A program made the position numbers and the translations under genes. The notes below the pieces were generated by a model. It made no database searches, was not told the DNA's origin, and saw only the letters and a list, made by a program, of their open reading frames with translations. 64,000 nt of DNA, from the IMG/VR virus record IMGVR_UViG_3300032294_001352, positions 1 through 64,000 of that record. One strand, given 5' to 3'. This stretch comes from a virus. Below, piece after piece: positions 14,149-59,438 of this stretch. How positions within the stretch are numbered: the stretch's first letter is position 1; every line of letters starts with the position of its first letter.

Positions 14149-14246
14149 GTACGTTGTTCTCATATGTGAACTATATAAGATGACATGGTTTGTAGGTATC
14201 ATGCAAAATATTGATTTTTGATGGATTGTATGAGCGTAGGTGAGTG

Positions 14247-14483
14247 ATGCATATATTTTCTGTGGCCATCCGTGCTGGTGAGATGCCATTTGACGTGGTG
14301 TTTGAGGATAACGGTGTATCGGTGAGTGTGCGTTTGTGCCAGGTAGGTGGATCAGTGTGGCTAGGTGTGTGGCCAACTGCGACTGCCGCATTTTTTGGCA
14401 CGCAGGCAATCCTCTCACAACTCGGTGAAATCCGTCTTGCGCTCCCAGACCAGCCGTTGACGTGGCAGCATGTAGAATCCTAG
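14247..14483 (+). CDS. Hypothetical protein, 78 aa
   Basis: Not recognised. MHIFSVAIRAGEMPFDVVFEDNGVSVSVRL suggests a beta sandwich, then WLGVWPTATAAFFGTQ and a C-terminal helix. The ribosome site (AGGTGA) is weak and there is no clear promoter, so the call is cautious. It ends at the edge of the putative origin. Confidence 0.55.
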   Translation: MHIFSVAIRAGEMPFDVVFEDNGVSVSVRLCQVGGSVWLGVWPTATAAFFGTQAILSQLGEIRLALPDQPLTWQHVES

Positions 14484-14509
14484 GCCATCCGTTGCTCCGT
14501 GTGTCTGCA

Positions 14510-14629
14510 CTGCCGCATTTCTGTGTCCACGGCCGACCATTTGCGTAACGCCACGAAAATGGTCATGCACCACGATCAATTCCGTGACGTGCTGAAATTG
14601 AGCGGAGCGTGTTCTGCCGCATTTCTGTG
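14510..14629. repeat. 16-bp direct repeat pair
   Basis: Identical 16-mers at 14510-14525 and 14614-14629, 104 bp apart, each containing the abundant heptamer TGCCGCA followed by TTTCTGTG. They flank the two short inverted repeats of the origin region. Confidence 0.85.
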
Positions 14630-14779
14630 GGGCAAAGCGCACACATTATATACCAGTGAAAAAGACGCGCCAACACAGAGGGGATTGAAAAGGCGCAAAA
14701 AAGTGCGTCTGGTAATTTTCTGGGAAACAAAAGTATTTTGAAAAACAAAAGGCACTATCCAAAACAGGATAATGCCAAA

Positions 14780-14810
14780 TGTGGATAAAATGTGGATAAC
14801 TTGTGGATAA
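14780..14810. promoter_or_regulatory. Three phased DnaA boxes
   Basis: Three perfect copies of TGTGGATAA (complement of the DnaA box TTATCCACA) start at 14780, 14791 and 14802, exactly 11 bp apart, so all face the same side of the helix. Perfect boxes in this phasing are very unlikely by chance and point to binding of host DnaA. Confidence 0.9.
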
Positions 14811-14811
14811 A

Positions 14812-15054
14812 TCAGGAAAAAGTGGATTCATTGATGCCATTCAGCCAAAAAAGGATGGCCTCGGTTTCAATGATGGCTTGGTGGATGGATATGCGTGCCT
14901 GAGCGTCGCGCGTGGTGGCCAACTCCTGCGAGAGTGTCAGCAGATGGCGATCCACGCGCGTGTAGATAACAGGAATGACGTGCCTACATGGCTGCCCAAA
15001 GATGTCAATGGTTGGCTTGGTGTCAAGCCAGGTGGATGGGATGAGTGCAGTCAT
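14812..15054 (-). CDS. Hypothetical protein, 80 aa
   Basis: Not recognised. Starts MTALIPSTWLDTKPTIDIFG; C-terminal half is helical (RHLLTLSQELATTRDAQARISIHQAI). The ATG is seven bases after AAGGAG and overlaps the stop of the gene upstream. It ends two bases from the DnaA boxes, so it may act at the origin, but nothing in the sequence proves that. Confidence 0.65.
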   Translation of the reverse strand: MTALIPSTWLDTKPTIDIFGQPCRHVIPVIYTRVDRHLLTLSQELATTRDAQARISIHQAIIETEAILFWLNGINESTFS

Positions 15055-15158
15055 TACCATTCTCCTTTGAGTTTGGCAATGATACCGACGACAATCATCC
15101 AACCGAACGTGACAAACAAGACAATGAGAAAGTCACCCATTGCGGAATCCCAGTTCAT
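15054..15158 (-). CDS. Single-pass membrane peptide, 34 aa
   Basis: MNWDSAMGDF followed by one hydrophobic segment (about residues 10-29, LIVLFVTFGWMIVVGIIAKL) and a short KGEW end. Start set by AGTAAGGAGC behind a cassette promoter, so it is probably an early product. Such peptides often act on the host envelope; the exact role is unknown. Confidence 0.72.
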   Translation of the reverse strand: MNWDSAMGDFLIVLFVTFGWMIVVGIIAKLKGEW

Positions 15159-15178
15159 AGCGTGCTCCTTACTAATCA

Positions 15179-15221
15179 TCAACCTACGATAGAGTGTAGC
15201 ACACAATATATAGTTTGTCAA
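15179..15221 (-). promoter_or_regulatory. AGGTTGA-cassette promoter (minus)
   Basis: TTGACA (15216-15221), 17-base spacer, TACACT (15193-15198), AGGTTGA (15179-15185), AGTAAGGAGC. Drives the two small genes at 15158 and 15054. Confidence 0.85.
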
Positions 15222-15223
15222 TG

Positions 15224-15232
15224 TGCTATACT
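15224..15232 (+). promoter_or_regulatory. Extended -10 promoter (plus)
   Basis: TGC directly before TATACT (15227-15232), with no good -35. Lies 30 bases upstream of the gene at 15262. The same TGCTATACT is used at 18456 and 54944. Confidence 0.55.
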
Positions 15233-15261
15233 GTATGCATGATGAATGAATGGAGGATGAC

Positions 15262-15900
15262 ATGGGATTACTGTTGGCAAATCTCCCACCGAAGCAGGTG
15301 CTGGTCCGTCGTGAGTTCCTGATGGATTTCGCTGAGGGTGATGGGGAATACGTAGAGGGCTACTGGATTGCAGTGAAGAGCGTACCTGGTCGTGCATTGT
15401 ACTTCGAGACATATCTGCCTGCCTATGGGGCTGTATACGATAAGTTGCCATTACATGCGTTTGTTACAATGATTCACGCCGATCCTGCGCCAATGCTATC
15501 AGATGTGCAGTATTGGGATGCAATGGATTACGGAGTGACGGTGATAGAGAAAACATTCTTAAAGAACACGGTAGCAGAAGTGCGCCCACCAAATAATGAC
15601 ACGGTGCGTGGGCAATACTGGTTTACGATAGACTTCTATTCCCCAACTGACACCATGGTAGATTCCCAGTGGGCGCATGTACCAAGCGAGCATAAGGCCG
15701 TGAATATCATTGCATTAGATAACGGCCTCATTGTGGGCTATCCTAATAATCGATGTCGGTTCTTTGATGGATCGCTGAGTGGCCAACAGGTAGGCGCGCC
15801 ACGCTTGAAAGCCAGCACGCGCGTCTGGTCCGCTGATGCTGAGCGATCTCGGTACTCACGGTATGGTGATACGGATACATGGGAATACACCAAGGAGTAA
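15262..15900 (+). CDS. Hypothetical protein, 212 aa
   Basis: Not recognised. Starts MGLLLANLPPKQVLVRREFL; rich in aromatic residues and Asp, with alternating strands (GYWIAVKSVPGRALYFETYL; GQYWFTIDFYSPTDT; AVNIIALDNGLIVGY) and a basic C-terminus. Not a membrane protein. GGAGG precedes the ATG. Followed directly by the PAPS-reductase-like gene, so probably co-transcribed. Confidence 0.72.
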   Translation: MGLLLANLPPKQVLVRREFLMDFAEGDGEYVEGYWIAVKSVPGRALYFETYLPAYGAVYDKLPLHAFVTMIHADPAPMLSDVQYWDAMDYGVTVIEKTFLKNTVAEVRPPNNDTVRGQYWFTIDFYSPTDTMVDSQWAHVPSEHKAVNIIALDNGLIVGYPNNRCRFFDGSLSGQQVGAPRLKASTRVWSADAERSRYSRYGDTDTWEYTKE

Positions 15901-15904
15901 TGTG

Positions 15905-16708
15905 ATGCGTGTCTTTAGTTTCGGTGGTGGCGTGCAAAGCATGGCCGTCTTAGTACTCTCTGCCCAAAGCGTGCTGCCTTATACGCATTTCGTGTTGGCC
16001 AATGTCGGTGATGATAGTGAGAATCCGGCCACGCTTGACTATGTGCGCCATATTGCAATGCCTTACGCAGATGCACACGGCCTTCAAGTGGTAGAGATTA
16101 AGCGCCCACGAAAGCCAGAGCAAGACCAAACGTTGTTTGAGGATGCATGGAATGAGAATGGAAACATTCCGATCCCAGTGTATATGACCAATAGCGGGCC
16201 TGGTTCACGCAACTGCACATCTGTATGGAAGATTAAAGTGATTGAGCGCTGGATGCGTGACAACGCTGGTGCAACCAAGAAGAATCGCGTACCGTTAGGT
16301 GTGGGGATTAGTGTGGATGAATCGCACCGAATGCGTACTGATGATCCGGAGCGTGAACCCTATCTCTATAAAGAATATCCACTGATTGACTTGATGATGA
16401 CACGCAACAAGTGTCAAGACGCAATCATCAAAGCAGGTTTGCCGCTCGCTCCCAAGTCATCCTGCTGGTTCTGTCCATACAAGCGAAAAGCCGAGTGGTC
16501 CAAGATGCGTGCTGAGCAGCCGGATTTATGGAGTAAGGCCGTAGAGTTAGAGCAGCGAATCGTGGCCAAACGTGTACGTGCTGGCAAAGATCCGGCCTAT
16601 CTCACGGCCTACAACAAACCACTTGAAGACATTATCCCACTCATATCCGTCAACATGTTTGATGATGACGATCCGATGGCGTGCGAGTCAGGCTACTGCA
16701 TGACGTGA
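15905..16708 (+). CDS. PAPS-reductase / adenine nucleotide alpha-hydrolase family protein, 267 aa
   Basis: Begins MRVFSFGGGVQSMAVLVLS: FGGGVQS (residues 6-12) is the PP-loop variant that binds ATP or an adenylated substrate. Further family signs are GSRNCTSVWKIKVIERW (Cys104) and CWFCPYKRKAEW (Cys187, Cys190). In phages this family is labelled PAPS reductase, but relatives such as DndC handle sulfur transfer to DNA or tRNA, so the true substrate is open. Start fixed by AAGGAG in the end of the preceding gene. Confidence 0.85.
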   Translation: MRVFSFGGGVQSMAVLVLSAQSVLPYTHFVLANVGDDSENPATLDYVRHIAMPYADAHGLQVVEIKRPRKPEQDQTLFEDAWNENGNIPIPVYMTNSGPGSRNCTSVWKIKVIERWMRDNAGATKKNRVPLGVGISVDESHRMRTDDPEREPYLYKEYPLIDLMMTRNKCQDAIIKAGLPLAPKSSCWFCPYKRKAEWSKMRAEQPDLWSKAVELEQRIVAKRVRAGKDPAYLTAYNKPLEDIIPLISVNMFDDDDPMACESGYCMT

Positions 16709-52361: not shown

Positions 52362-52494
52362 GGGGATGCTCTGGTATTGACAGGGTGATTTGGCAATCAG
52401 TAGCGATAACTGCCCACGGGAAGACGCGAACGCTGCCTGCCTTTAATGGTGATAATCATTCTGGACTGCGGTTCGACTCCGCACATCTCCACCA
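52362..52494 (+). ncRNA. ssrA: Very short tmRNA (133 nt)
   Basis: tmRNA rescues stalled ribosomes. Acceptor stem GGGGATG (52362-52368) pairs with CATCTCC (52484-52490), with a G-U at the third pair, the alanine identity signal; A and CCA follow. T-arm TGCGG/CCGCA with loop TTCGACT; the D-region CTCTGGTATTGACAGGG matches the tmRNA consensus; helix P2 is GGGTGATT with AATCATTC (52454-52461). The possible tag frame ends at TAA (52444) with further in-frame stops at 52450 and 52453; it reads ...EDANAACL, not the usual LAA end. Most tmRNAs are 300-400 nt with four pseudoknots, which are absent here. Confidence 0.85.
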
Positions 52495-54531: not shown

Positions 54532-54858
54532 ATGAGCGTGTTGAAAGATGAGTGCGGCAAAGATGTAGCCATTGTGGATCGGAATGAACACGGTGGCTAC
54601 ATTGTACGCTTCCAAGTGCATGGCCTTTGGTTTGACATCTCATCGGTGTGCAACCAGCACAATGATTTGATGTATCAACGCTGCATAGAAAAAGCCATGC
54701 TCCAACTAGAATGGTATGCAGGATGTGATGACGTGCTGAACCGACGTGCGGCACTGCAGATCAAGTCAATCACCACTGGACCAGTACCACCAATGATGAG
54801 CAGCACCGTGATGAGCGTGCTGAGCATGTGGCGAGATTTTCAGCGATCAGGTAGGTGA
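54532..54858 (+). CDS. Hypothetical protein, 108 aa
   Basis: Not recognised. Starts MSVLKDECGKDVAIVDRNEHGGY; a strand-rich first half and helical second half with LEWYAGCDDVLNRRAALQI and a Met/Ser-rich end. Weak ribosome site (AGGGA). Ends exactly at the start of the operator repeats. Confidence 0.66.
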   Translation: MSVLKDECGKDVAIVDRNEHGGYIVRFQVHGLWFDISSVCNQHNDLMYQRCIEKAMLQLEWYAGCDDVLNRRAALQIKSITTGPVPPMMSSTVMSVLSMWRDFQRSGR

Positions 54859-54928
54859 TTTGCAAAAAATGCAATTCATTTGCGATTATCGCAATTCATT
54901 TGCAAAAAGTGCAAAGAAACATTTGCAT
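54858..54928. repeat. Tandem palindromic operator repeats
   Basis: Three units beginning ATTTGC at 54858, 54878 and 54898 and a part unit at 54921. The first two are 20 bp, the third 23. Each unit holds a palindrome of TTTGC and GCAA with a six- to seven-base AT centre. The last unit overlaps the -35 of the promoter at 54923. This is the layout of a cooperative repressor or activator site for the replication genes. Confidence 0.8.
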
Positions 54929-54952: not shown

Positions 54953-55002
54953 ACGAACGTGGTCATGCACCACTAGTCAACTAATCAGTTAAGGAGAAAG
55001 CC

Positions 55003-55737: not shown

Positions 55738-56439
55738 ATGATTCCAAGTCAGTTATACGCAGATATACCTGACTTGACGGATACGGAGTTGCGCATCATC
55801 CTCGTGGTGATTGGCCACCAAGGCATCATGACGATGGGTGATGTGCAACAACGTACAGGGAGAAATCGACAGGTGTATGACGCAGTGAAGTCATTAGAGC
55901 AAAAGGGATGGTTAATGCGGCACAAAGTGGCATCGCTTGGTCCAGTGGCGTGGCGTTGGGAAATCCTCCGCTACACCGTTGCACCGATCACCCCACCAGT
56001 GCCAGAACCACCTGCACTGACTGAACCACCAGTCATCACGCAGGCAGCAGAAGATGCGGCAGTGAGTGTGAGTACCGTGGAATCCACTCCGGTGAATCCA
56101 CCAAAACCATCCAAGGCCAAAGCCAAAGCACCAAAGCCGGTGACAGCACAACACCACCCAGCCGTGGTGGCATACATGGAAATCACCCGTCGTCGACCGA
56201 CACATGCGGCAGCAGAGTTAATTGCAGCGCACGTTGCTGATGTGGATCGTTGGCGTGAGGCCGTTAAGTCGTACATTGTGCGTGGATGGAATCCCATGAA
56301 TGTCAACGGAATGATCCAAGTCTACAATGGTGATTTGGTTGTGAAGCGCGGGCGGCATAGCACAATCATTCCCCACCAATCACCAGACGTGGCAAAGGCA
56401 GCATGGGATGAGTATCTGAGCAAGGGGGAAGATGAATGA
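55738..56439 (+). CDS. Winged-helix replication protein (initiator-like), 233 aa
   Basis: N-terminal winged helix (about 15-75: DTELRIILVVIGHQGIMTM, GRNRQVYDAVKSLEQKGWL), Pro/Lys-rich linker (about 85-140), and a C-terminal helical domain (RWREAVKSYIVRGWNPMNVNGMIQVY, about 170-198) as in phage replication proteins that sit before a DnaC-type loader. Probably binds the origin or delivers the loader. Overlaps the next gene by four bases. Confidence 0.68.
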   Translation: MIPSQLYADIPDLTDTELRIILVVIGHQGIMTMGDVQQRTGRNRQVYDAVKSLEQKGWLMRHKVASLGPVAWRWEILRYTVAPITPPVPEPPALTEPPVITQAAEDAAVSVSTVESTPVNPPKPSKAKAKAPKPVTAQHHPAVVAYMEITRRRPTHAAAELIAAHVADVDRWREAVKSYIVRGWNPMNVNGMIQVYNGDLVVKRGRHSTIIPHQSPDVAKAAWDEYLSKGEDE

Positions 56440-57155
56440 CAATGGTTGACGTGCAATGCTGTGATGGGAGCGGATGGTACAAAAAGGAAGTTCCGTTTGG
56501 CCATCCTGACTGGGGAAAGTTGTTTCGGTGTGAGTGCGGCAAGGCTGGCGATCCGGAAGCGCGGATGAATGCGTTGCATGATGCACTCAAATCCTATGGC
56601 GAGTGTCGGTTTGACAACTGGTTTACCGATCGACCACTAGAACCAAACACATGGGGTGGCGTGACGTACAAGACGGAAGATCAGTACAAGGCCTTACGGA
56701 TTGCTACCAAGCGCGCCAAAGCCTATGCTGACGATCCTGAGGGAATGCTCTTTATCTTTGGCAGTTTCGGTGCTGGTAAGACGCACTTGGCTGCAGCCAT
56801 AGGCTACGCATGTGCAGAGCGGAATCTGCGTGTGCAGTATCACAACATCACTAATCTCGTAAGCAAACTGCGGCAAGCAGCAGGTGACTTTGATGTGGAG
56901 TCAATCATGCAACCACTGTTGACTGCTGACGTGCTGATCTTGGATGACATCGGTGCTGAGGAATCAATGTCAGCCTTTATCCAGTCACAAATCTATCGCT
57001 TGATTGATGAGCGATTGCATTTGGCCACCGTTATCACGTCAAATCTGGATGTGCAGTCACTCACGGACAAGATCGGTGGGCGCACGCAATCTCGATTACA
57101 AATGGCCCAGACCATCTGGTTGCCAGTATCTGATTACCGGAAGCAGAAGAAGTAG
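56436..57155 (+). CDS. DnaC/DnaI-like helicase loader ATPase, 239 aa
   Basis: AAA+ ATPase that loads replicative helicase. Walker A GSFGAGKTH (about 109-117), Walker B VLILDDIGAE (about 166-175), sensor ITSNLD near 213. The N-terminus has CCDGSGW and RCECGK, a zinc-binding type found in DnaC-like proteins. A helicase gene is not seen in this window, so host DnaB or an outside gene would be the partner. ATGA overlap with the gene upstream. Confidence 0.88.
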   Translation: MTMVDVQCCDGSGWYKKEVPFGHPDWGKLFRCECGKAGDPEARMNALHDALKSYGECRFDNWFTDRPLEPNTWGGVTYKTEDQYKALRIATKRAKAYADDPEGMLFIFGSFGAGKTHLAAAIGYACAERNLRVQYHNITNLVSKLRQAAGDFDVESIMQPLLTADVLILDDIGAEESMSAFIQSQIYRLIDERLHLATVITSNLDVQSLTDKIGGRTQSRLQMAQTIWLPVSDYRKQKK

Positions 57156-57156
57156 C

Positions 57157-58341
57157 ATGGACATTCAACGCAAAGCCAAAATTGCGGCACAACAGACGTT
57201 GTTTGATGTGCAACCAAACTGGAAAGACTTCTGGTGGGATATGCCTGCCTTTGAGCAGCAGGATGCAAGAGCAACCAAGACCATCAGTGTTCACTTCCTG
57301 ACCATGGATGACTTCTATGAGTTTTGTGCGGCACTTGATGTGAAGTTGACTCCGAAGTCACTCTCACTCTGGTACCCACCACAGCAACGGATGAATGGTG
57401 AGTATCTGTACACTGGACCACAGGTAGATGCACGCTATCCGGTGTGCATTCCATCCAAGGGGCGCTGGGATAACCACAAGACTGCGGCAGCACTTGATCG
57501 GATGGGTGTGTCATACCGGTTCTTTGTAGAAGACACAGAGGCTGATGCGTACATCAACGCACTTGGGGCTGAGCGTGTGGTGGTCATGCCATTCCATGAT
57601 CTTGGCCAAGGCAGCATTCCGGCCAGAAACTTTATCTGGGAATGGGCAGTCACGCATGGATATAGGCGGCATTGGGTGATGGATGACAACATCGTCAACT
57701 TCAAGCGGATCACTAACAATCGACGAGTGAGAGTTCGCACTGGCATGTTTTTCCGTGCCATTGAGGATTTCGTGGATCGCTATGACAACATTGCGTTGGC
57801 TGGTCCGCACCATGACGGTTTCGTCAAAGATCGCTATCCTCACAAGCCACCAGTCATCTTTAATCGCCGCATCTACTCATGCATCCTGATAGACTCCACA
57901 CTTCCATACCGGTGGCGTGGAAAGTACAACGAGGATACCGATTTGAGTCTGCGTGTGCTAAAAGATGGCTACTGCACAGCCTTGTTTGCTGCGCTCACCA
58001 TGCACAAGCCCACGACTGCTGGCGGCAAGGGGAAACCGATGAAAGGGGGAAACACCGATACCGTTTATAACACGACTGATTACCGATTGGCCTTTGCTCA
58101 GTCACTGAAAGAGCAACACCCTGACGTGGTGGAAGTGACGTGGAAGTTTAATCGCTGGCACCACCATGTGGATTACACACCGTTCAAGAACAACCAGCCT
58201 ATACTCAGAGCGGACATCACGCCAAAGCCTGGCACCAATGAGTATGAGATGCGTTTAGTCCGTGCGGCAAGTGGTGACATTGACGTGGATCTTGATGACG
58301 ATATTGATACTGACATGATAGAAGATGAGGATGACGTATGA
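57157..58341 (+). CDS. TET-associated glycosyltransferase-like protein, 394 aa
   Basis: Central domain (about 90-330): YPVCIPSKGRWDN, YRFFVEDTEAD, IPARNFIWEWA and WVMDDNIVNFKR (a DD pair suited to sugar-nucleotide binding), then YNEDTDLSLRVLKDG. This matches glycosyltransferases of the TAGT type, which in phages attach sugars to modified bases. A short N-terminal part (DFWWDMPAFEQQD ... SLWYPP) is common in phage ParB-neighbour proteins. The end is acidic. No TET/JBP oxidase is in the window, so the acceptor is unclear. The ATG at 57157 follows AGAAGAAG. Confidence 0.7.
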   Translation: MDIQRKAKIAAQQTLFDVQPNWKDFWWDMPAFEQQDARATKTISVHFLTMDDFYEFCAALDVKLTPKSLSLWYPPQQRMNGEYLYTGPQVDARYPVCIPSKGRWDNHKTAAALDRMGVSYRFFVEDTEADAYINALGAERVVVMPFHDLGQGSIPARNFIWEWAVTHGYRRHWVMDDNIVNFKRITNNRRVRVRTGMFFRAIEDFVDRYDNIALAGPHHDGFVKDRYPHKPPVIFNRRIYSCILIDSTLPYRWRGKYNEDTDLSLRVLKDGYCTALFAALTMHKPTTAGGKGKPMKGGNTDTVYNTTDYRLAFAQSLKEQHPDVVEVTWKFNRWHHHVDYTPFKNNQPILRADITPKPGTNEYEMRLVRAASGDIDVDLDDDIDTDMIEDEDDV

Positions 58342-59438
58342 AGTTCGTAGTACACCGTGACAATCTCCGTAAGGCCATCTCTATGGTTGGTCATGCCATT
58401 CCGAGTAAGACATCACTTCCGGTGTTGGCCAACATCTTGGTTCAGTCTGATGGTGACACGCGCCTCCGTGTTGCGGCAACGAACTTGGAGTTGGGGATTA
58501 CCTGCTGGATTCCGGCCACCATCACGGAGCGTGGTCAAATCACCGTACCTGGCAAGTTAGGTGGTGACTTGGTCAACAACCTGCCCAGTGAACCTATCCA
58601 TGTGAATGTGGATGCTACCAGTATCCGAATGCAATGCGGCAAGTTTGACAACACCATCATGGGATTGTCAGCAGAAGATTTCCCCACGCTGCCCAAAATC
58701 ACGCATCCATCCATCACGCTCCCACGCGCGTTTGTGGATGCGATTGATCATGTCATTGTGGCTGCAGCCACGGATGACTCTCGACCAGTGCTCACGGCCG
58801 TGCGTATCGTGGTGAATGAGCACTCCGTGGAACTGGTCTGTGCTGACGGATTCCGTTTGGCACGCACCACGTTCACACTGAGCGAACCTGCGGCACCTAC
58901 GGAGATTCTTGTACCTGCACGCACCATGGCTGAAGTGCTGCGGATTATGGGCAATGCTGAGTCTATCACCATGGCCATTAGCCCCAACAACAACCAAGTG
59001 GCGTTCATCTCTGAGGATGTGGAGATAGTCAGCCGTGTCATTGAGGGAAAGTATCCTGACGTGGCGCGTGTCATTCCCACGGAGTTCCAGTCACAGTTCG
59101 TCTTTGAGATTGATGAACTGCGTCGTGCTTCTAAAGTTGCGGCATTGATGAATCCTGCGTCTGGTGTCAAGTTGATGATCACGCCAATGCACATTGCACT
59201 CATTAGCAGTGGCCAGAGCATCGGTACTGGTCAAGCATTGATTGGTGGAGTCCACGAAGGTGCGCCACATGACATCAACCTGAACGTCAAGTACTTGCAG
59301 GATGCGTTGAATGCAGTGCAGAGCGCAGGCGGCACCCAAGCAGTGTTGCGGACCACGAGTAGCACTGCCCCAGCCATTCTTCAAGCCGTAGGCAATACCA
59401 ACTACGTTCACGTTGTAATGCCGATGATGGTCCGATAA
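58338..59438 (+). CDS. dnaN: DNA polymerase sliding clamp (beta subunit), 366 aa
   Basis: Full-length three-domain clamp: MKFVVHRDNLRKAISMVGHAIPSKTSLPVLANILV at the start, ADGFRLARTTF in the middle, and IEGKYPDVARVIP with a final NTNYVHVVMPMMVR. Length equals bacterial DnaN. The first codon overlaps the previous stop (ATGA). Keeps the polymerase on DNA; the polymerase itself is not in the window. Confidence 0.93.
   Translation: MKFVVHRDNLRKAISMVGHAIPSKTSLPVLANILVQSDGDTRLRVAATNLELGITCWIPATITERGQITVPGKLGGDLVNNLPSEPIHVNVDATSIRMQCGKFDNTIMGLSAEDFPTLPKITHPSITLPRAFVDAIDHVIVAAATDDSRPVLTAVRIVVNEHSVELVCADGFRLARTTFTLSEPAAPTEILVPARTMAEVLRIMGNAESITMAISPNNNQVAFISEDVEIVSRVIEGKYPDVARVIPTEFQSQFVFEIDELRRASKVAALMNPASGVKLMITPMHIALISSGQSIGTGQALIGGVHEGAPHDINLNVKYLQDALNAVQSAGGTQAVLRTTSSTAPAILQAVGNTNYVHVVMPMMVR

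What the first reader, a model, noticed from the sequence alone, without database searches (positions are those of the whole stretch)
14484..14811. Putative phage origin with three perfect DnaA boxes spaced 11 bp
Three perfect TGTGGATAA sites, exactly one helical turn apart, sit beside a hairpin, an A-rich tract, two inverted repeats with equal 14-base loops and a 16-base direct repeat, all in non-coding DNA. Most phages use their own initiator; a DnaA-dependent origin fits the DnaC-like loader and dnaN found at 56-59 kb.
Basis: partly seen in the sequence, partly recalled or inferred. Interest (0 to 1): 0.8.

Follow-up and report, generated by a model that had tools for sequence, protein, structure and literature searches.

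The report
Phage's three-box host DnaA docking site
An 88-kb phage genome carries, at one single place, three perfect binding sites for the host's replication-starting protein DnaA in a row; the sites are real and of a kind found in many phages and in bacterial origins, but whether this is where the phage starts copying its DNA is unproven.

Summary
TGTGGATAA occurs at 14780, 14791 and 14802 (+), 11 bp apart. These are the only perfect DnaA boxes in the complete 87,753-bp circular map, and about 2e-11 such triples are expected by chance. The same triple occurs in at least 119 viral contigs (reversed control: 1), with a sharp preference for 11- and 12-bp spacing. It also occurs in at least 118 bacterial loci, 54 of them with dnaA or dnaN on the fetched stretch. 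Host DnaA binding is therefore very likely (about 0.85).

The origin reading is only partly supported. The hairpin at 14751-14776 is the intrinsic terminator of a leftward two-gene operon, and the array lies exactly between that operon's stop codon and the terminator. There is no DnaA-trio and no skew turn. The array lies about 41 kb from the phage's own winged-helix/DnaC-like loader/clamp operon, and it is absent from relatives. Viral arrays generally lack the AT-rich flanks of bacterial ones and sit near terminase genes or genome ends. In favour: no recognisable phage polymerase or DnaB, a phage loader and clamp, and a flank among the least stable 1% of its DNA.

Verdict: new member of a known kind, a host-DnaA docking array; origin role about 0.4.

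The parts
14780..14788 (+). perfect DnaA box 1 (TGTGGATAA)
14791..14799 (+). perfect DnaA box 2
14802..14810 (+). perfect DnaA box 3
   Evidence: fold z -4.3
14812..15054 (-). 80-aa gene of unknown function; ATG after a GGAG site; stop codon 1 bp from the array
   Evidence: no Pfam match
15054..15158 (-). 34-aa putative single-pass membrane protein gene, first gene of the same operon
15193..15221 (-). sigma-70-like promoter of the leftward operon (TTGACA-17-TACACT, TG before the -10)
   Evidence: consensus match only
14690..14779 (.). A-rich, low-stability flank of the array (best 100-bp window 14713-14812, 70% AT, least stable 0.6% of the genome; it overlaps the boxes themselves)
14510..14525 (+). 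direct repeat CTGCCGCATTTCTGTG, copy 1
14614..14629 (+). direct repeat, copy 2; the two copies flank both inverted repeats with 9-bp gaps
14535..14564 (.). inverted repeat GACCATTT-N14-AAATGGTC
14573..14604 (.). inverted repeat CGATCAATT-N14-AATTGAGCG (8 of 9 pairs)
14244..14483 (+). 79-aa gene that bounds the interval on the left (positive codon-usage score)
55738..56439 (+). winged-helix protein directly upstream of the loader; candidate phage-encoded initiator (rival to DnaA)
   Evidence: weak TrmB/HTH match; AlphaFold model too poor to use
56436..57155 (+). DnaC/DnaI-like helicase loader
58338..59438 (+). DnaN-like sliding clamp

Best explanation
The 31-bp array at 14780-14810 is a docking site for the host's DnaA protein. 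Host DnaA molecules bind the three same-facing high-affinity boxes side by side and cooperatively, because 9-bp boxes with 2-bp spacers put neighbouring molecules on nearly the same face of the helix. The most likely use is to help start phage replication with host machinery: the DnaA filament destabilises the A-rich flank at about 14.70-14.78 kb, and the phage's DnaC-like loader, with its clamp, brings in host DnaB and the host polymerase there. Shown here: the boxes, their non-randomness, their uniqueness in the genome, the low-stability flank, the loader and clamp, and the absence of recognisable DnaB and polymerase genes. Inferred: DnaA binding. Only proposed: melting, helicase loading and initiation at this place.
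For: Three perfect boxes, unique in the genome, about 2e-11 expected. At least 119 viral contigs hold the exact triple against 1 for the reversed control; across 101 non-redundant loci spacing peaks at 11 and 12 bp (72 and 68 cases, against 0 at 10 and 4 at 13), with smaller peaks near 21-22 and at 33. The same arrays occur in bacterial genomes, 54 of 118 loci also holding dnaA or dnaN. E. coli oriC arrays are built with 2-bp gaps (PMC6727663). The 100-bp flank is among the least stable 0.6% of the genome, the 50- and 80-bp ones among the least stable 0.9%. Loader and clamp present; no match in the record to DnaB_C, DNA_pol_A, DNA_pol_B or DNA_pol3_alpha, nor to DnaA domain IV, so DnaA would have to be the host's.
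Against: No DnaA-trio on either side, although this test did not separate bacterial arrays from shuffles either. No skew turn at the array. A winged-helix gene next to the loader about 41 kb away looks like a dedicated initiator-loader pair. The array is missing from 80 relative loci and 20 relatives' records, though most of those are fragments. Viral arrays in general lack AT-rich flanks and lie near terminase genes rather than replication genes. The A-rich flank is partly a terminator's T-tract. A dozen other places in the genome are less stable.
Confidence: 0.4

Rival explanations
1. DnaA sink or regulatory site. The array binds host DnaA but does not start replication: many phage copies titrate DnaA away from oriC, or bound DnaA acts on transcription of the leftward operon whose 3' end it occupies (DnaA as a roadblock before the terminator).
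For: The array lies exactly between the operon's stop codon (14812) and its terminator stem (14776). Viral arrays lack the AT-rich flanks that bacterial arrays have. Most other viral arrays carry further same-facing boxes nearby (134 same against 18 opposite; 75 of 119 loci), as a sink would.
Against: Three boxes per genome is a small sink next to a host chromosome. The terminator already ends the transcript, so a roadblock would be redundant. Nothing tested here shows regulation.
Confidence: 0.25
2. Genome-end or DNA-entry element. As proposed for T5, DnaA bound at the array handles incoming or terminal phage DNA, for example pausing injection.
For: T5's injection stop region is described as holding repeats, inverted repeats, palindromes and DnaA boxes (PMC13250531). 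Arrays in T5-like phages, Berlinvirus P483/A7, Siara (inside its terminal repeat), Arthrobacter phage Tiff81 and Vibrio BD1 lie in end-proximal non-coding DNA. Terminase large subunit families are the commonest near viral arrays (9 of 104 proteins). The direct and inverted repeats beside this array resemble the T5 description.
Against: Here the terminase gene (record 74454-75788) is about 27 kb away on the circular map, and no physical end is known near 14.5 kb. The record's own 123-bp repeat marks another place.
Confidence: 0.15
3. The phage's real origin is in or near the replication operon at 54.9-57.2 kb and is recognised by the winged-helix protein (55738-56439) as in lambda O/P; the DnaA array is at most an accessory.
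For: Winged-helix gene directly before a DnaC-like loader. Three tandem 20-bp dyad repeats at 54858-54917 in AT-rich DNA just before the operon. Degenerate repeats in the proline-rich linker of the winged-helix gene.
Against: The dyad TTGCR-N5-YGCAA recurs at record 81982, 82000, 86404, 86447, 86490 and 86510, which looks like a repressor regulon rather than iterons. The in-gene repeats are weak. The winged-helix protein has no match in known phages and its model was unusable.
Confidence: 0.35
4. Chance or relic: three boxes without present function.
For: Array absent from relatives, inside an accessory block.
Against: About 2e-11 expected by chance; all three copies perfect; strong spacing preference across unrelated viruses.
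Confidence: 0.07

Closest known systems
Bacterial oriC DnaA-box arrays (e.g. E. coli oriC; PMC6727663)
   Same: same-facing 9-bp boxes separated by 2 bp; the exact triple occurs in bacterial loci with dnaA/dnaN
   Different: no trio, no skew turn, no dnaA nearby; all three boxes are perfect consensus (E. coli's arrayed sites are low-affinity); no further boxes around
DnaA boxes of T5-like phages (proposed injection stop region; PMC13250531)
   Same: phage-borne closely spaced DnaA boxes in non-coding DNA with other repeats
   Different: T5 arrays lie in the pre-early end region; here no end is known nearby; T5's own replication genes are recalled, not tested
End-proximal DnaA arrays of Berlinvirus P483/A7, Stenotrophomonas phage Siara, Arthrobacter phages, Vibrio BD1
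   Same: matching box arrays in non-coding DNA
   Different: near genome ends or terminase; here in an accessory block far from terminase
P1 and other plasmid-type replicons with DnaA boxes beside initiator iterons (recalled from general knowledge)
   Same: host DnaA boxes used by a mobile replicon
   Different: no iterons and no Rep gene next to this array
Lambda-type phage origin (O iterons, P loader; recalled from general knowledge)
   Same: phage loader and a possible initiator in one operon
   Different: that operon is about 41 kb away; the array is not iterons

Membership tests
DnaA-dependent (oriC-type) origin | cluster of high-affinity DnaA boxes | tested here: met
   three perfect boxes, unique in the genome
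DnaA-dependent (oriC-type) origin | adjacent AT-rich unwinding element | tested here: inconclusive
   flank among the least stable 0.6-0.9% of the genome but not unique, and partly terminator T-tract and the boxes themselves
DnaA-dependent (oriC-type) origin | DnaA-trio (3'-[G/A]A[T/A]-5' repeats, more than 3) next to the boxes (PMC7561715) | tested here: not met
   none within 60 bp on either side; the test has little power, since bacterial arrays score 7% against 4% in shuffles
DnaA-dependent (oriC-type) origin | GC-skew turn at the site | tested here: not met
   detrended minimum at 40.1 kb and maximum at 76.4 kb; third-position skew follows genes, not position
DnaA-dependent (oriC-type) origin | DnaA binding, unwinding and autonomous replication | not testable with these tools
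   needs bench work
Lambda-type origin (initiator iterons) | iterons in or beside the initiator gene | tested here: inconclusive
   dyad repeats at 54858-54917 look like operators; in-gene repeats weak; none at 14.5 kb
T5-type injection stop region | end-proximal position | tested here: inconclusive
   physical ends of this phage unknown; terminase about 27 kb away
T5-type injection stop region | repeats, inverted repeats and DnaA boxes together | tested here: met
DnaA titration/regulatory site (datA/DARS type) | DnaA sequestration or nucleotide exchange | not testable with these tools
   no assay possible

The most novel reading that the evidence does not exclude
Tandem DnaA-box arrays are a recurrent, probably convergent device by which unrelated phages capture host DnaA for a purpose other than oriC-like melting, such as handling genome ends or entry, or curbing host initiation. 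Their lack of AT-rich flanks and their closeness to terminase genes and genome ends would be its signature, and this phage would be one user.
Probability: 0.2. Interest if true: 0.65.

Novelty: new member of a known kind. Interest (0 to 1): 0.38.

Why it matters
DnaA boxes in tailed phages have been reported piecemeal. Here one clean, minimal case (three boxes, nothing else, one place in a complete genome) is set against at least 119 viral contigs with the same phased array. That gives a small, testable substrate for asking what phages use host DnaA for: starting replication, blocking it, or handling genome ends.

Tried and rejected
Close relatives through the clamp, the loader and the 15250-15900 protein gave none in viral contigs. 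BLASTN of 13.0-16.7 kb against phages gave only a 122-bp Synechococcus phage match; BLASTN of 14484-15240 against plasmids gave only a box-level match. DnaA-trio content does not separate bacterial arrays from shuffles, so it was given little weight. The dyad repeats at 54.9 kb were first read as iterons, then set aside as operators because they recur at three loci. A structure for the winged-helix protein (single sequence) had mean pLDDT 43.5 and was not used. RNA folds of 14484-14720 on either strand were not significant; no Rfam family reached its gathering score there. No phage integrase or resolvase family matched, so an attP reading of the repeats has no support. PubMed Central searches found no paper on phage tandem DnaA arrays beyond the T5 remark.

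Full report
Setting. The window is part of a virus record of 87,876 bases. Its first and last 123 bases are identical, so the record is very likely complete, with a circular map of 87,753 bp; whether the repeat is a true terminal repeat or an assembly overlap cannot be told. The phage encodes terminase, portal and head proteins, an Erf-like annealing protein, a winged-helix protein, a DnaC/DnaI-like loader, a DnaN-like clamp, a TET-associated glycosyltransferase and ParB-like proteins (the portal at record 75785-77899 is inferred from size and position beside the terminase, not from a family match). No match was found in the record for DnaA domain IV, DnaB_C, DNA polymerase A or B, DNA polymerase III alpha, phage integrase or resolvase.

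The observation. Chance is excluded: 1.8e-11 expected. The 16-base direct repeat and the two 14-base-loop inverted repeats exist. The direct repeat is beyond simulation; the inverted repeats are suggestive only, since the loop length was picked after seeing it. The repeats form a regular block (repeat, hairpin, hairpin, repeat, with gaps of 8-9 bp) about 150 bp left of the boxes, which I could not explain.

What surrounds it. The hairpin beside the boxes is the intrinsic terminator of a leftward operon: stem 14776-14751 on the minus strand, all ten pairs formed with one G-U, T-rich tail, fold z -4.3. The operon has a good promoter match at 15221-15193 and two small genes, each behind a Shine-Dalgarno-like site, ending at 14812. 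The array fills the space between the stop codon and the terminator, 1 bp from one and 3 bp from the other. The interval is thus intergenic between convergent genes. Among 34 viral contigs with enough flank that is the rarest arrangement (2 of 34).

How common such arrays are. In a sample taken without fixing the spacing, 101 non-redundant loci gave 72 neighbours at 11 bp and 68 at 12 bp, 0 at 10 and 4 at 13, with smaller peaks at 21-22 and 33. This helical phasing in unrelated sequence contexts is strong evidence that the arrays are bound by DnaA. The same triple is in at least 118 bacterial loci, 54 of which also hold dnaA or dnaN on the fetched stretch. A review of E. coli oriC states that its low-affinity sites lie in arrays with 2-bp gaps that favour cooperative binding (PMC6727663).

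Is it an origin? For: the above, the low-stability flank, the loader and clamp, and no recognisable helicase or polymerase of its own. Against: bacterial arrays are flanked by AT-rich DNA, viral ones are not. The families most often found near viral arrays are terminase large subunit and portal, with few replication genes. In named phages the arrays lie in non-coding DNA, often at ends: Berlinvirus P483 and A7 next to the terminase and end region, Siara within its terminal repeat, Arthrobacter phage Tiff81 and Vibrio BD1 within about 50-80 bp of the record end. Others lie in long gaps between gene clusters (phiL47, Kamaji). For T5 the region with DnaA boxes has been proposed as an injection stop signal (PMC13250531). 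No trio and no skew turn were found, but both tests are weak. The phage's own replication operon lies about 41 kb away. The dyad repeats before it look like repressor operators because the same dyad recurs at two other clusters.

Relatives. The major head protein has relatives at up to 85% identity in viral contigs and at 40% in two Brevundimonas phages. None of 80 relative loci (0.93 Mb) or 20 relatives' records, four of them complete phage genomes, carries paired or tripled boxes. In this phage the usual terminase-portal-protease-head order is split by a block of about 28 kb (record 77.9 kb to 18.4 kb), and the array lies in that block (compare). The array is therefore not an inherited feature of the group, as far as these fragments show.

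Judgement. Host DnaA docking is very likely (0.85). An origin role at this site is the best single mechanism, but only at 0.4. The rivals are a DnaA sink or regulatory site, an end or entry element, or an origin at the replication operon with this array as an accessory; these overlap and their probabilities are not exclusive. The finding is a clean member of a known and widespread kind.

Noticed in passing
window 52362-52494 +: tmRNA-like gene: Rfam tmRNA 68 bits, E 4e-26, model ends 1-374 matched but only 133 nt long; acceptor end, T-arm and CCA present, the mRNA-like and pseudoknot part shrunk to a short insert; a short tag frame starting GCA and ending TAA can be read by eye. ARAGORN does not call it, and a very short stretch (261 bases) missed it at the gathering threshold. 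A phage-borne, pseudoknot-less tmRNA would be unusual.
   Followed up: partly
record 54860, 54880, 54900 (window); 81982, 82000, 86404, 86447, 86490, 86510: Repeated dyad TTGCR-N5-YGCAA in three clusters, one in AT-rich DNA just before the replication operon: looks like operators of a phage repressor.
   Followed up: partly
window 14510-14629: Regular block of two 16-bp direct repeats flanking two 14-base-loop inverted repeats with 8-9 bp gaps; function unknown.
   Followed up: partly
window 14560-14573 and 54960-54973: Shared 14-mer TGGTCATGCACCAC, in the interval and in the leader of the replication operon (there part of the dyad GTGGT-N5-ACCAC); about 0.2 expected by chance.
   Followed up: no
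record 1-123 and 87754-87876: Exact 123-bp direct repeat at the record ends: circular or terminally redundant complete genome.
   Followed up: no
viral array loci L002-L120: Tandem DnaA-box arrays in viral contigs lie near terminase and portal genes more often than near replication genes, and extra boxes nearby are mostly same-facing, 134 against 18.
   Followed up: partly
window 57004-58341; record 72518-73189, 69833-70408, 77984-79633: TET-associated glycosyltransferase, Mom-like protein, dCTP deaminase-like protein and DNA methyltransferase: suggests modified phage DNA.
   Followed up: no
record 77.9 kb to 18.4 kb: Accessory block of about 28 kb inserted between terminase/portal and head protease genes that are close together in relatives; includes ferredoxin-family and PAPS-reductase-like phage auxiliary genes at 15250-16708.
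   Followed up: no
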